This document shows positions 28,868 through 33,046 of a stretch of DNA of 64,000 nt, in pieces. Made by a program: the position numbers and the translations under genes. Origin of the DNA: Microcaldota archaeon. GTDB lineage: Archaea; Micrarchaeota; Micrarchaeia; Micrarchaeales; CABMGC01. Each line of letters starts with the position of its first letter. Within the stretch, counting starts at the first letter, position 1. Under the pieces are notes generated by a model. That model saw only the letters and a program-made list of their open reading frames with translations, was not told where the DNA came from and searched no databases. Where the stretch lies: positions 181,483 through 245,482 of the forward strand of contig DAHXNY010000001.1 in assembly GCA_027365175.1 (NCBI GenBank). The letters are read 5' to 3'.

Positions 28868-28881
28868 TGCGCAAAGGTGCT
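28868..28881 (+). repeat. Putative target-site duplication, left copy (14 bp)
   Basis: tgcgcaaaggtgct, identical to 33033-33046 in direct orientation, immediately outside the inverted repeats. Confidence 0.9.
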
Positions 28882-29008
28882 GGGGTTATATATAGAGACC
28901 ACATTTTGCACCCCCTTTTTGTCGTCGAAGCTAAAATCTGTCGTCGTAAAATTCGGTACTTTTTATAGCCCAGATTCTAACAATATCTTAGCCTCGCCAC
29001 CGCCAGAT
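28882..29008 (+). repeat. Terminal inverted repeat, left (127 bp)
   Basis: ggggttatatatagagaccacattttgcaccccctttttgtcgtcgaagc...ctcgccaccgccagat; exact reverse complement of 32906-33032. Confidence 0.97.
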
Positions 29009-29099
29009 CGCCGTATTCAGAAAGAGAAAGTTTACACTGATTACTTTACCAGATCAGTAGGTAGCTTATAAGATTTCAATAGTTCCACCTTTTTTACCT

Positions 29100-29996
29100 T
29101 CAACCAGTTAGACTTAGATATGCATAACTGTTAGGGCACGAAGCTCCATTTGAGCCTGTTTTAATGTAAGTAGTATACGTACCTACTGGGAAGTAATAGG
29201 ATTTCGTATCTGTAAGACAAGACGGGGTATCAGATACGCTTTGGTTGAGATAATAGGCATTATTTGAAGGGGTGCTATTGTATACATCCACAATGAGATT
29301 AGTAAATTGACCTTCATTGTCAGATACAGTCAAATATCCTCCAGACCACGTGCAAGAACCACTCGTACTAGAGCTTGCCGAACTTTCAGTTAACTGAAAA
29401 CTACTGCAAGAAACTGAACCAGAATTGTAAATTGTAGTAGTTGGTTGGATGGTGGTTGTATAATGTTGTAAAATTGTTGTAGTCGAAATAGAAGTTGATA
29501 GTATGCTACCCGTATTTACGTTATAGTACTTTGCATCCGACCCCACATTAACTAATGGAGAACATCCAGTTACATTGTTGTAATAAGTTCCATAAGTTCC
29601 AATATTAACAACAGAAGGACATGCATTTTGATAGTTTACATAAGTTCCGTAAGTACCTATGTTTACTACAAATCCAGAACAATTTCCATCAGTACTGCCA
29701 CTACCATAAGTACCTATGTTCACTACAGACGTGCAATTTGGAGATTGTATTGTTGTATAATTTGTAGAAGTAGTAGAGTTTAATGTGTATGGTATAGTTG
29801 TCTGGAGAGTGGTTGTGTTTTGGTTAGCCGAATTACCAAAAATATTTGTGAAAAAGTTTTCTATCAAAGCTATAAAATTAGAAAATACGCCCCACCGTCC
29901 GTTGTTGCTTGTCTGGTTGTTAGACGTTATTGTTGTAGTGGTATTTTGAGAAGTATACCGTGTGATTGTAGTGGGTGTGGTTGTCGGTGCAAGTCT
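29100..29996 (-). pseudogene. 5'-truncated Thr-rich repeat surface protein
   Basis: The frame of the 29100-29867 ORF stays open to a TGA at 29997-29999, giving APTTTPTTITRYTSQNTTTTITSNNQ..., but has no signal peptide or ATG start; truncated where the transposase reading frame begins. Confidence 0.65.
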
Positions 29997-30888
29997 TCAG
30001 AATAAGAGCATCGAATATACTGCAAACGCTCCAAATGGAGATACAATATTCGAAAGACTTGAACGGTCTCTTACTGTTGATGAACTTAGGAGATATGTGA
30101 GAGAAACAAGACCAATATTCAGAGGTTACGCAACTGTCGCAATTGATGAACATGTGGAGATTTTTTATGGTGACAAAGATACTGATGGTGTAATAGGCAC
30201 AAAGCCCAAAAACGGATCAAGTTATGCGTTCAGTTTTCTTGCTGTAAAGATAATTGTCCGCAACAAGGAATATGTTGTGGACTTGATACCGTTATACGAC
30301 AACAAAGTTGCTGAGCATACGATAGAAGTATTGGAGGAACTAGTGAAGTTATACAGAATAAATATGATCCTCATAGATGCAGGTTTTAGAGACTCAGATT
30401 TGTTGAACTGGATAGTAGGAAGAGATATTCACCTCATAACGCGCATGAGAACATCGAAGAATCTCAGGATAAAAGACGTCGAATACAATAAGGCGTATCT
30501 GTACTCTTCTCTGTACGAGAAAGGCACATACAACTCCATATGTAAAAAGATGTTCGTGTATAGGTTCAGGGATAAAAAACACAGAGATTTTTACCTCTTA
30601 TCAGATATGGATGAAGAACCGTCATGGATAAAAGATACCTATCGACTGAGATGGGGAATAGAAACTGGATTCAGGGACGTAAACAAAATGGAGATAAAGA
30701 CGACAACAAAGAACAAGGTAATACGGCTGTTTTTCTATATCATCTCCGTTCTTATGTATAACATCTGGATAGAGGTACGTTCAGAGTCCTATGTTCGACT
30801 AGACACGTTGAGGTCCATTCTAATAAGAATTGTTGTAAGTTCCATGGAATTGCGTGGTAATTTACTTCGTATAATGGGATTGGGGTAA
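29962..30888 (+). pseudogene. DDE transposase (IS4/ISH3-like), apparently 5'-truncated
   Basis: VAIDEHVEIFYGDKD...MILIDAGFRDSDLLNWI...YRLRWGIETGFRDVNKMEIKTTTKNKVIRLFFYIISVLMYNIW. The N-terminal helical domain is absent; frame blocked by a TGA at 29947-29949. Confidence 0.8.
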
Positions 30889-31203
30889 AAACTTATACTA
30901 ACAGGAACAGGCCGTCTTTGATGGTAGTGTAAAGTATGTGCAGTTACTCAGAAATCATGTCTTTTGCAGGAATATCCCATCCCTCCTCTATGAATTTATT
31001 ATCATGTTGGGATAATTTCTATTCGAAATAGCGGCCATAGATATGTATTTCAATGTCTATGCGGAACTACTGAGATAGGATTTCTTTGTCTATCTCCATG
31101 TATTTACCTGGTGCCGTAGGATTAGATGCCCTGACTTCTCAAAAGTTTATCTCTGCTGAGATTTTACTAGACTCCACAGGTTATTGAGCAAATACCCAAA
31201 ATG

Positions 31204-31629
31204 CTATGGCTTGTTCATGCTTTTCCTGCCGATTATCGTGCGCCATATATTAATTGCGTGCAGCAGAACTGCCACGATTAATGCTACTAGACCTATGATG
31301 AGGATTGCGACGTCTTTCTGGCCAGTTAGTGCGACACCCTCAAATGCAATTACTCCAGAATTCAGGAGAATGTACTCTACTACTATAGCCTTGTAGCTTG
31401 TTCCGCTATGACGTGAAACTCCAGGCACAAATATGTAAGAAACTCCAAAAATCAACTGCGTAACAAAACCATACAGCAAAAGCATGAATATTGGGTCTTT
31501 GCTTATGGTGACCGCGCCTGACAGGCTGATGGCGAGGAGTATTGTCCCTATTACGAAGTACAAAAACCCAGTAGCTATGTAAAGCCTTACCATTTTGCTC
31601 GTTGCTGCAACATTGTCCATCAAACGCAC
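31204..31629 (-). CDS. Four-TM membrane protein, hypothetical (cargo)
   Basis: 141 aa, four hydrophobic stretches with FGVSYIFVPGVSRHSG between TM2 and TM3, loosely reminiscent of haem-copper-oxidase/NnrS-like membrane proteins. Confidence 0.6.
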   Translation of the reverse strand: MRLMDNVAATSKMVRLYIATGFLYFVIGTILLAISLSGAVTISKDPIFMLLLYGFVTQLIFGVSYIFVPGVSRHSGTSYKAIVVEYILLNSGVIAFEGVALTGQKDVAILIIGLVALIVAVLLHAINIWRTIIGRKSMNKP

Positions 31630-31680
31630 CCGCTATCTATAGCAGAATCATTATTTATAAATTATTCCCAACCTAACGAG

Positions 31681-31701
31681 ATAAGGGGCTTCGCCCCTTA
31701 T
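31681..31701. repeat. Perfect 9-bp-stem hairpin
   Basis: ataaggggc-ttc-gccccttat. Confidence 0.75.
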
Positions 31702-31713
31702 AAACCCTCAGCA

Positions 31714-31758
31714 CGGGCGGGTTCCTCCGCAGCAAGCTAGCGGTATCTCACCCGCCCG
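31714..31758 (-). repeat. Nested hairpin downstream of tnpA, probable IS200/IS605 right-end structure
   Basis: CGGGCGGGT(31714-31722)/ACCCGCCCG(31750-31758), internal CCGC(31727-31730)/GCGG(31740-31743), 2 nt beyond the tnpA stop codon. Confidence 0.65.
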
Positions 31759-31760
31759 AA

Positions 31761-32087
31761 TCAGTTGAATTGCAGTTTCATCTGGTGGTCTTCTTCATGT
31801 TTCATGAATGGTTCGTATGAGACATCCTGTCGCCTTATGTAGTTCTTTATTATATTTTCACCGACAGGACCAACACTACTGTTGCTATACTGCCCTCCCC
31901 AAAAGTGTTTCCTTGGATATCTTTTTATGAAGTTCGGCATTTCTGCGAAGATTTTCGAAGCAGAATGCGACTTCAGGATCTGTACAACCTGTTCTATTGA
32001 GAGGTTGTTTGGAACGTTTACTTCCCTATGCACGTGCGCGTAGTCGTCTCCGAACGAGAATTCCTTTATCTTTATCCTGTACTGCAT
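31761..32087 (-). pseudogene. tnpA: IS200/IS605-type TnpA (Y1 HUH transposase), N-terminally truncated
   Basis: FGDDYAHVHREVNVPNNLSIEQVVQILKSHSASKIFAE...FWGGQYSNSSVGPVGENIIKNYIRRQ: HUH (HVH) and catalytic Tyr motifs; the usual leading strand (…PKYRR…) is missing. Confidence 0.75.
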
Positions 32088-32187
32088 TTCTGTTTCTCGA
32101 AATGCATCTGTTTAGGCTAAAAAAGAAGATAAAACTAGGAAAGCCGATAGTTTTAAAGAAGAAAACGCTAAAGAAGTTAATGAAAGT

Positions 32188-32859
32188 GTGATGAAAATGT
32201 TAGAAGACATGTTACTGGTAATGCGAAATCCAAGACTAGCAATTAATACATTATTAACCGCTCGTCGAAAAATAAAGTTTTATTCCCATCTGAATGAGAT
32301 ATTCTTCAATCAGCCATATTATTGGCTATGGTCTCATGCCAAACCACATACTACTTTGATAGATATTGGTGCTTTTATAGGAGACACTGCTGTCTATTTT
32401 GCAATGAATCCTAATATAGACAAAATAATAGCATATGAACCAAATCCGAAGACCTTTGAGATCCTATCAAATAACATACGGGCTCTACCAAAGCCAATAG
32501 CGTCTAAGATAAAACTAAAGAACACACCAATTTTCAATGAAGAAGTTTATGTTAGTAATTCAACAAATGCAGTAACAGGAACTAACAAAGTATTAGTGGG
32601 GGGGGGCGAAGCAGGTTCTATTAAAGCAACAACGTTGAGATTGGAGCTAAAAAACCTAAAAAACATAATGATTAAGAGTGATTGCGAAGGTGCAGAGTAT
32701 CAGATATTTAATGATGTGAAAGATCTAAAGGAAGTGTATGCTGTACAATTAGAATATCATAAAGGACACACGTTGATGTTGAACTTCTTTGAAAGGGCGG
32801 GTTTCAAATGTACATATTCATCTGAAGAAAAGCTGGGATATCTCTCTGCATTAAAATGA
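32188..32859 (+). CDS. FkbM-family methyltransferase (cargo), containing a G9 tract
   Basis: TTLIDIGAFIGDTAVYFAMNPNIDKIIAYEPNPKTFEILSNNI...IMIKSDCEGAEYQIF...AVQLEYHKG. Confidence 0.85.
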   Translation: MMKMLEDMLLVMRNPRLAINTLLTARRKIKFYSHLNEIFFNQPYYWLWSHAKPHTTLIDIGAFIGDTAVYFAMNPNIDKIIAYEPNPKTFEILSNNIRALPKPIASKIKLKNTPIFNEEVYVSNSTNAVTGTNKVLVGGGEAGSIKATTLRLELKNLKNIMIKSDCEGAEYQIFNDVKDLKEVYAVQLEYHKGHTLMLNFFERAGFKCTYSSEEKLGYLSALK

Positions 32860-32905
32860 TTGGTATCTGTTAGTCGTGCAAAAATCTCTCTTTCTAAGGA
32901 CGTCT

Positions 32906-33032
32906 ATCTGGCGGTGGCGAGGCTAAGATATTGTTAGAATCTGGGCTATAAAAAGTACCGAATTTTACGACGACAGATTTTAGCTTCGACGACAAAAAGG
33001 GGGTGCAAAATGTGGTCTCTATATATAACCCC
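32906..33032 (-). repeat. Terminal inverted repeat, right (127 bp)
   Basis: Exact reverse complement of 28882-29008. Confidence 0.97.
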
Positions 33033-33046
33033 TGCGCAAAGGTGCT
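33033..33046 (+). repeat. Putative target-site duplication, right copy (14 bp), overlapping the tRNA-Glu 3' end
   Basis: tgcgcaaaggtgct. Confidence 0.9.

What the first reader, a model, noticed from the sequence alone, without database searches (positions are those of the whole stretch)
28868..33046. A 4,151-bp TIR element with 127-bp perfect inverted repeats and a 14-bp target duplication at the 3' end of tRNA-Glu
28882-29008 and 32906-33032 are exact reverse complements over 127 bp. Immediately outside, tgcgcaaaggtgct occurs at both ends in direct orientation. The right copy overlaps the last acceptor nucleotides, discriminator and CC of tRNA-Glu(CTC), so insertion duplicated the tRNA 3' end and left the tRNA intact. 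A TIR-bounded element with a ~14-bp duplication at a tRNA 3' end is the pattern described for casposons (Cas1-integrated, ~14-15-bp duplications, tRNA or EF-2 3' ends), yet no Cas1 or PolB is visible here. IS4-group transposases giving ~10-13-bp duplications are an alternative. The cargo combination (surface protein, membrane protein, FkbM methyltransferase) could be a previously undescribed element family.
Basis: partly seen in the sequence, partly recalled or inferred. Interest (0 to 1): 0.9.

Follow-up and report, generated by a model that had tools for sequence, protein, structure and literature searches.

The report
Cas1-less casposon at an archaeal tRNA
This is a stripped-down casposon, a jumping gene related to the machinery that CRISPR uses to store memories; it sits behind a transfer-RNA gene in a tiny archaeon and lacks its own integrase, and it belongs to a large, apparently undescribed set of full-length and broken casposons in the Micrarchaeota.

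Summary
A same-genus genome carries the empty site.

The casposon guess is also right. The tip GGGGTTATATATAR occurs in 70 of 165 genomes of this Micrarchaeota order and in 1 of 138 other genomes of the phylum. About three quarters of the tips lie 29-31 bp downstream of a tRNA T-loop TTCAAATC. That is the target geometry measured for the Aciduliprofundum casposase. Five relatives are complete casposons (8.5-10.8 kb, 14-bp duplications) with casposase and B-family polymerase.

The window element lacks Cas1. It keeps the outer ends of two casposon genes: a surface-protein C-terminus (74% identical) and the HTH tail of the polymerase. Between them lie IS relics and other genes. It is therefore an internally deleted, Cas1-less casposon, probably inserted by a casposase acting in trans, or decayed after insertion. 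A casposase N-terminus survives at a contig edge elsewhere in this genome.

Relatives form a deletion series from 7.3 kb down to an 18-bp fused-tip scar, and insertions stack at one site. No held paper describes casposons in Micrarchaeota or natural non-autonomous casposons.

The parts
28868..28881 (.). left (distal) 14-bp target-site duplication TGCGCAAAGGTGCT
   Evidence: exact direct repeat of 33033-33046; single copy in the empty site of G059
28882..29008 (+). left terminal inverted repeat, tip GGGGTTATATATAG
   Evidence: 127/127 reverse complement of 32906-33032; tip shared by 128 end sequences collected in the order
29100..29867 (-). 3' part of a surface-protein gene; its C-terminal 106 aa match the cargo of a complete casposon
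   Evidence: 74% identity over 106 aa to L061:9964-11487; same place beside the TIR and same outward orientation
29962..30888 (+). ISH3/IS4-like DDE transposase gene, cargo or relic that truncates the surface gene
   Evidence: NCBIfam ISH3 E 1.4e-36, below the curated cut-off; Pfam DDE_Tnp_1 E 9e-13
31204..31629 (-). small membrane protein, no family
31761..32087 (-). truncated IS200/IS605 Y1 transposase (lacks the first ~37-43 profile positions)
   Evidence: Pfam Y1_Tnp E 5e-16, profile 38-121; NCBIfam IS200 E 1e-13
32099..32188 (+). remnant of the C-terminal HTH tail of casposon PolB (residues 852-881)
   Evidence: 67% identity, E 7.7e-4 in the own-genome search; 71% over 28 aa; the same ~90 bp are retained in many related elements
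32188..32859 (+). FkbM-family methyltransferase gene, cargo in the slot between the polymerase tail and the TIR
   Evidence: TIGR01444 E 3e-16, PF05050 E 2e-9
32906..33032 (-). right terminal inverted repeat, tip at 33032
33033..33046 (.). right (tRNA-proximal) 14-bp target-site duplication
33041..33117 (-). tRNA-Glu(CTC), target gene, intact
   Evidence: ARAGORN
33055..33062 (-). T-loop motif TTCAAATC, presumed casposase recognition motif, starting 30 bp from the tip and leaving 8 bp before the duplication
   Evidence: sequence; same spacing in 46/62 and 49/66 tips; TCAAATC shown to be recognised by the A. boonei casposase (PMC6614799)

Best explanation
The element is a non-autonomous casposon of a Micrarchaeon. 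A complete casposon of the tRNA-targeting kind (TIR, Cas1 casposase, B-family polymerase with HTH tail, HNH and HTH proteins, surface-protein cargo, TIR) lost its centre. The outer ends of the surface gene and of PolB remain, together with the TIRs, and the centre now holds IS relics, a membrane protein and an FkbM methyltransferase. A casposase, most likely supplied in trans, binds the GGGGTTATATATAG tips. It recognises the tRNA T-loop motif TTCAAATC and joins the ends across a 14-bp stagger that starts 8 bp further on. The target is duplicated and the tRNA 3' end is restored. Shown: TIRs, duplication, empty site, shared tips, conserved target spacing, homologous gene remnants, complete relatives, and a casposase N-terminus in the same genome. 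Inferred: that Cas1 did the joining, and that it acted after the deletion (in trans). The confidence given is for 'casposon-derived, Cas1-less element'; for movement in trans after the deletion I put about 0.6.
For: Anatomy and exact 14-bp duplication. Empty site in G059. Tip in 70/165 genomes of the order versus 1/138 elsewhere in the phylum, against few reversed-pattern control hits. T-loop TTC[AG]ANTC 29-31 bp from the tip in 46/62 and 49/66 tips, at Glu, Pro, Arg and Ile tRNAs. Complete casposons with the same tips and 14/14 duplications: L061 8,505 bp, L059 10,738 bp, L159/L188 10,308 bp, L192 9,778 bp; L062 10,753 bp has a variant tip. Their Cas1 matches the M. mazei casposase 6OPM at E 1.8e-78, against 1e-26 for the next Cas1. 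Window surface protein 74% identical to L061 cargo. PolB tail in the window. Casposase N-terminus in the own genome, 50% identical, grouping with these casposases. A. boonei casposase recognises TCAAATC 8 bp before a 14-15-bp duplication at tRNA-Pro (PMC6614799). Deletion series: 7,348 bp and 5,304 bp with cut-down Cas1 and PolB, 899 bp without either, 18 bp fused tips.
Against: No near-identical Cas1-less element was found intact at two sites, so movement after deletion is not proven. The best case is 653 bp at 95.9% between two genera at different tRNAs. The own-genome casposase is cut by a contig edge and may be broken; a displaced C-terminal scrap lies nearby. The polymerase tail in the window is only 28-30 residues.
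Confidence: 0.93

Rival explanations
1. Decayed in place: an autonomous casposon inserted here and only later lost Cas1 and PolB through internal deletion and IS insertion. It never moved as a Cas1-less unit.
For: Both outer gene remnants are in casposon order. Relatives show partial internal deletions with intact ends (L190, L191). No dispersed identical Cas1-less copies were found.
Against: The TIRs are 127/127 identical and the duplication 14/14 while the interior holds an already truncated IS200 gene and a truncated surface gene. In the complete relative L061 the two arms differ within the first 30 bp, so the perfect arms suggest recent activity or gene conversion.
Confidence: 0.35
2. A DDE transposon of the ISH3/IS4 group moved the 4.15-kb unit.
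For: An ISH3-like transposase gene lies inside.
Against: From general knowledge, ISH3 duplications are short (about 4-5 bp), not 14 bp. The tips are shared with elements that carry Cas1 and PolB. The fixed T-loop spacing matches casposases. The gene sits asymmetrically inside and truncates the surface gene.
Confidence: 0.02
3. A tyrosine-integrase element whose 14-bp repeat is an att site and whose TIRs are arm sites.
For: The tRNA 3' end is a classic integrase target. Two relatives have about 63- and 84-bp direct repeats that include the tRNA 3' half (L026, L035).
Against: Only 14 bp are duplicated in the window and in the complete casposons, and the same tips sit at tRNAs of four amino acids with unrelated 14-mers. 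No integrase gene was seen in the window element.
Confidence: 0.02

Closest known systems
Family 2 casposons (AciBoo-C1 of Aciduliprofundum boonei, MetMaz-C1 of Methanosarcina mazei, NitNCS1-C1)
   Same: TIRs, 14-15-bp duplication, tRNA 3' end, TCAAATC 8 bp before the duplication; the complete relatives carry casposase with a C-terminal HTH-like tail, PolB with a similar tail, and HNH-like and other small proteins
   Different: The window element has no Cas1 and only a PolB tail; the host is Micrarchaeota; TIR tip GGGGTTATATATAR; many relatives are deletion derivatives
Tandem casposon arrays of M. mazei and Ca. Nitrosopumilus adriaticus
   Same: repeated insertion at one target site
   Different: Here the stacked units include Cas1-less and scar-sized ones (L040, L059, L063, L188)
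Synthetic mini-casposon of M. mazei (PMC10359463)
   Same: TIR-bounded DNA without Cas1, inserted in trans at the natural site in vivo
   Different: That one is engineered; this is a natural counterpart
MITEs and Ds-type deletion derivatives of DNA transposons (general knowledge)
   Same: retained ends, lost transposase, graded internal deletions
   Different: driven by a Cas1-type integrase, site-specific for tRNA genes

Membership tests
Casposon (superfamily), window element | terminal inverted repeats | tested here: met
   127 bp exact; published range 25-602 nt
Casposon (superfamily), window element | target-site duplication of about 14-15 bp | tested here: met
   14/14, with empty site
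Casposon (superfamily), window element | encodes Cas1 (casposase) | tested here: not met
   no Cas1 match inside the element; the only own-genome matches lie on contig C24. Hence 'casposon-derived, non-autonomous', not a full casposon
Casposon (superfamily), window element | encodes a B-family DNA polymerase | tested here: not met
   only the C-terminal tail, residues 852-881
Family 2 casposon, Micrarchaeota relatives L061, L059, L062 | Cas1 with C-terminal HTH, closest to a known casposase | tested here: met
   6OPM E 1.8e-78 aligned through the C-terminal tail; E163/H237/E252 invariant among the three; similar tail on PolB
Family 2 casposon, Micrarchaeota relatives | PolB | tested here: met
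   no Pfam or PDB hit, but polymerase motifs DFTSMYPS, N-x3-YG and Y-x-DTD and the exonuclease DTE, N-x3-D and Y-x3-D residues are invariant (read by eye)
Family 2 casposon, Micrarchaeota relatives | HNH nuclease and two HTH proteins | tested here: inconclusive
   HNH only weak (PHROG 119 E 0.003); HTH proteins suggested by sequence, no Pfam hit
Family 2 casposon, Micrarchaeota relatives | tRNA 3'-end target with TCAAATC 8 bp upstream of the duplication | tested here: met
   reference PMC6614799
Casposon | Cas1-catalysed integration | not testable with these tools
   needs biochemistry
ISH3/IS4 group | element ends and duplication set by the DDE transposase | tested here: not met
   14-bp duplication; tips shared with Cas1-bearing elements

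The most novel reading that the evidence does not exclude
Micrarchaeota hold an active two-tier casposon system. Few autonomous casposons mobilise many natural non-autonomous ones in trans, down to units too small to code for an integrase. The enzyme repeatedly reuses one T-loop-anchored site, so that target duplications alternate with short inserts of different age. That would be a natural, living counterpart of the proposed step from casposon target sites to CRISPR arrays.
Probability: 0.4. Interest if true: 0.88.

Novelty: new variant of a known kind. Interest (0 to 1): 0.74.

Why it matters
Casposons are held to be the source of the CRISPR adaptation machinery, but few are known and natural Cas1-less ones have not, in the held literature, been described. 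Here are complete casposons, graded deletion derivatives, stacked insertions and 18-bp scars across an order of very small archaea, all anchored to the T-loop of tRNA genes at the spacing measured for a purified casposase. This gives many natural targets and ends for testing what a casposase recognises, whether it works in trans, and how repeated use of one site could have grown into a CRISPR-like array.

Tried and rejected
Exact 34-mer tip in genome contigs: 0 hits, because the family tip is variable after base 14. Cas1 relatives in viral contigs: none. PolB against Pfam, NCBIfam, PHROGs and PDB: no hit; rested on motifs instead. Degenerate tips in the own genome with 2 mismatches: 8 beyond the two ends, about the level of the reversed control (7), so not counted. 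Search for dispersed copies of one Cas1-less interior: none clean. Cas1 of G032, G066 and G026 fall with the CRISPR-type Cas1 in the tree (two lie beside Cas9-like genes) and were not counted as casposases. Literature: no paper with casposon plus MITE; none describing casposons in Micrarchaeota; the library holds only open-licence papers.
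Full report
Observation. The arms 28882-29008 and 32906-33032 are exact reverse complements over 127 bp, and the first difference is at base 128. The 14-mer TGCGCAAAGGTGCT flanks the 4,151-bp body in direct orientation. The right copy overlaps 6 nt of the annotated tRNA-Glu(CTC), which is intact. 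In this 795-kb, 29-contig genome the repeat occurs only at these two places.

Empty site. Same-genus genome G059, whose clamp-loader protein RFC-L is 95% identical, has the same tRNA next to RFC-L and the same left flank (81% over 410 bp). At the junction there is one copy of the 14-mer (12/14 identical) and no element. The window state is therefore an insertion into a formerly empty site. Other same-genus genomes also lack the tip there, but their flanks have diverged.

A widespread end. The TIR finds relatives in 19 of 79 genomes of the same family. The 14-base tip GGGGTTATATATAR occurs in 71 of 303 genomes of the phylum. All but one of these are in the same order (36/79 and 34/86 in its two families, against 1/138 elsewhere), with few hits of the reversed pattern. 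Public records with the same contigs place the hosts in Candidatus Micrarchaeota.

Target geometry. In 46 of 62 tips of the first family and 49 of 66 tips collected from the second (a few of the latter are seen twice in overlapping loci), the T-loop motif TTC[AG]ANTC starts 29-31 bases, nearly always 30, before the tip. ARAGORN finds Glu, Pro, Arg and Ile tRNAs there. Thirty bases equal 1 + 7 (TCAAATC) + 8 + 14. This is the arrangement mapped by mutation for the A. boonei casposase: TCAAATC, 8 bp, then a 14-15-bp duplicated segment at the 3' end of tRNA-Pro (PMC6614799). The locus between tRNA-Glu and RFC-L is hit again and again: tips lie beside RFC-L in G030, G031, G034, G035, G037, G041, G048, G050 and G069.

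Complete casposons with these ends. Cas1 genes in the family, a scan of named genomes and paired tips in the sister family led to elements with 14/14 duplications: L061 (8,505 bp), L059 (10,738 bp), L062 (10,753 bp, variant tip GGGGTATAGTATATAA), L159/L188 (10,308 bp) and L192 (9,778 bp). Each carries Cas1 and an ~880-920-aa B-family polymerase. The Cas1 of L061 aligns over its whole length, including the C-terminal tail, with the M. mazei casposase 6OPM at E 1.8e-78; the next Cas1 is at 1e-26. The polymerase has no library hit, but the B-family motifs are invariant. An HTH-like tail on both Cas1 and PolB, a weak HNH match and tRNA targeting match the published definition of family 2 casposons. 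The nearest casposases outside Micrarchaeota are mainly in Nitrosopumilus and Nitrosarchaeum (51-56%). Two of those also sit at tRNAs with tips GGGGTATAGACA and GGGGTAAAGACA.

What the window element is. Its left gene is the end of a surface-protein gene whose last 106 residues are 74% identical to the casposon cargo in L061. In both elements that gene ends beside the TIR and points outward. At 32099-32188 lies the tail of the casposon polymerase (67-71% over 28-30 residues; E 7.7e-4 for the genome search), and the same ~90-bp stretch is kept in many related elements. The rest of PolB and all of Cas1 are absent. In their place are an ISH3-like transposase gene, a small membrane protein, a truncated IS200 transposase and an FkbM methyltransferase. 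It is an internally deleted casposon.

A deletion series. Other elements with intact ends and good duplications are L191 (7,348 bp, parts of Cas1 and PolB), L190 (5,304 bp, Cas1 C-terminus next to PolB C-terminus), L040 (899 bp, neither gene) and L114 (18 bp, GGGGTTATATATAACCCC, duplication 13/14). The 18-bp units equal two tips fused at their shared TATATA, most simply scars left by deletion between the tips (inference). Stacking is visible where another tip starts directly behind the far duplication: L040, L059, L188 and, with a variant tip, L063. Tandem casposons are known from Methanosarcina and Nitrosopumilus, and an engineered mini-casposon inserted in tandem in vivo.

How it works. A casposase joins the tips across a 14-bp stagger downstream of the T-loop motif. 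For the window element the enzyme must come from elsewhere, unless Cas1 was lost after insertion. This genome holds a casposase N-terminus (50% identical, start codon and 123 matched residues uninterrupted) at the edge of contig C24, with a displaced C-terminal scrap nearby. It groups with the Micrarchaeota and thaumarchaeal casposases (98/99 support for that clade; the row is only 31% filled and long CRISPR branches are present, so this is a weak placement). Movement in trans is favoured by perfect arms and duplication around an already decayed interior. It is not proven: no identical Cas1-less interior was found at two sites.

Verdict. The casposon reading is right, and the window element is a Cas1-less derivative. 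The new points, as far as the held open-licence literature shows, are casposons in Micrarchaeota, natural non-autonomous casposons in graded sizes, and a very strict T-loop-anchored target across an order.

Noticed in passing
L114:9632-9649, L059:4951-4968, L117:10188-10205: 18-bp palindromes GGGGTTATATATAACCCC at casposon target sites by tRNA 3' ends, two of them flanked by near-exact duplications: two casposon tips fused at TATATA, probably scars of lost elements.
   Followed up: partly
L026 (3,422 bp apart), L035 (8,086 bp apart): Direct repeats of about 63 and 84 bp spanning the tRNA 3' half, the 14-mer and the casposon tip; this looks like an integrase or recombination event superimposed on a casposon site.
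   Followed up: partly
first ~35 bases of all tips, e.g. L061 3113 vs 11617: Between the constant GGGGTTATATATA and a second block (ATTTTGCACCCC, AAATGTCCCCC or AAATGTTACC) lie about 7-9 variable bases that differ even between the two ends of one element; the window's 127-bp perfect arms are the exception.
   Followed up: no
window 32099-32188 and many related loci: The HTH tail of PolB is kept next to the TIR in many Cas1-less or truncated elements; perhaps only end-proximity, perhaps a retained DNA-binding peptide or cis site.
   Followed up: no
L163 (Nitrosarchaeum, tRNA-Ser GCT), L165 (Nitrosopumilus, tRNA-Glu CTC): 13.7- and 14.7-kb thaumarchaeal casposons at tRNA genes with tips GGGGTAAAGACAG and GGGGTATAGACAAG.
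   Followed up: partly
L060:2881-9156, L064:420-4371: Cas1 genes near large Cas9-like proteins in two same-family genomes (type II-like CRISPR loci in archaeal genomes).
   Followed up: no
L057:1-1515 (G000:C24): Casposase N-terminus at the contig edge, an AbrB-like small gene resembling one in L063, and a displaced Cas1 C-terminal scrap: a second, rearranged casposon remnant in the window's genome.
   Followed up: partly
L129 about 2900-3150 versus window 28840-28868: The empty-site genome G059 has about 250 bp with a small ORF upstream of the site that are absent in the window.
   Followed up: no
L102:2030+ and L113:987-: 653 bp at 95.9% identity starting at the tip, at different tRNAs in two genera: recent spread of one element end between genera.
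   Followed up: partly
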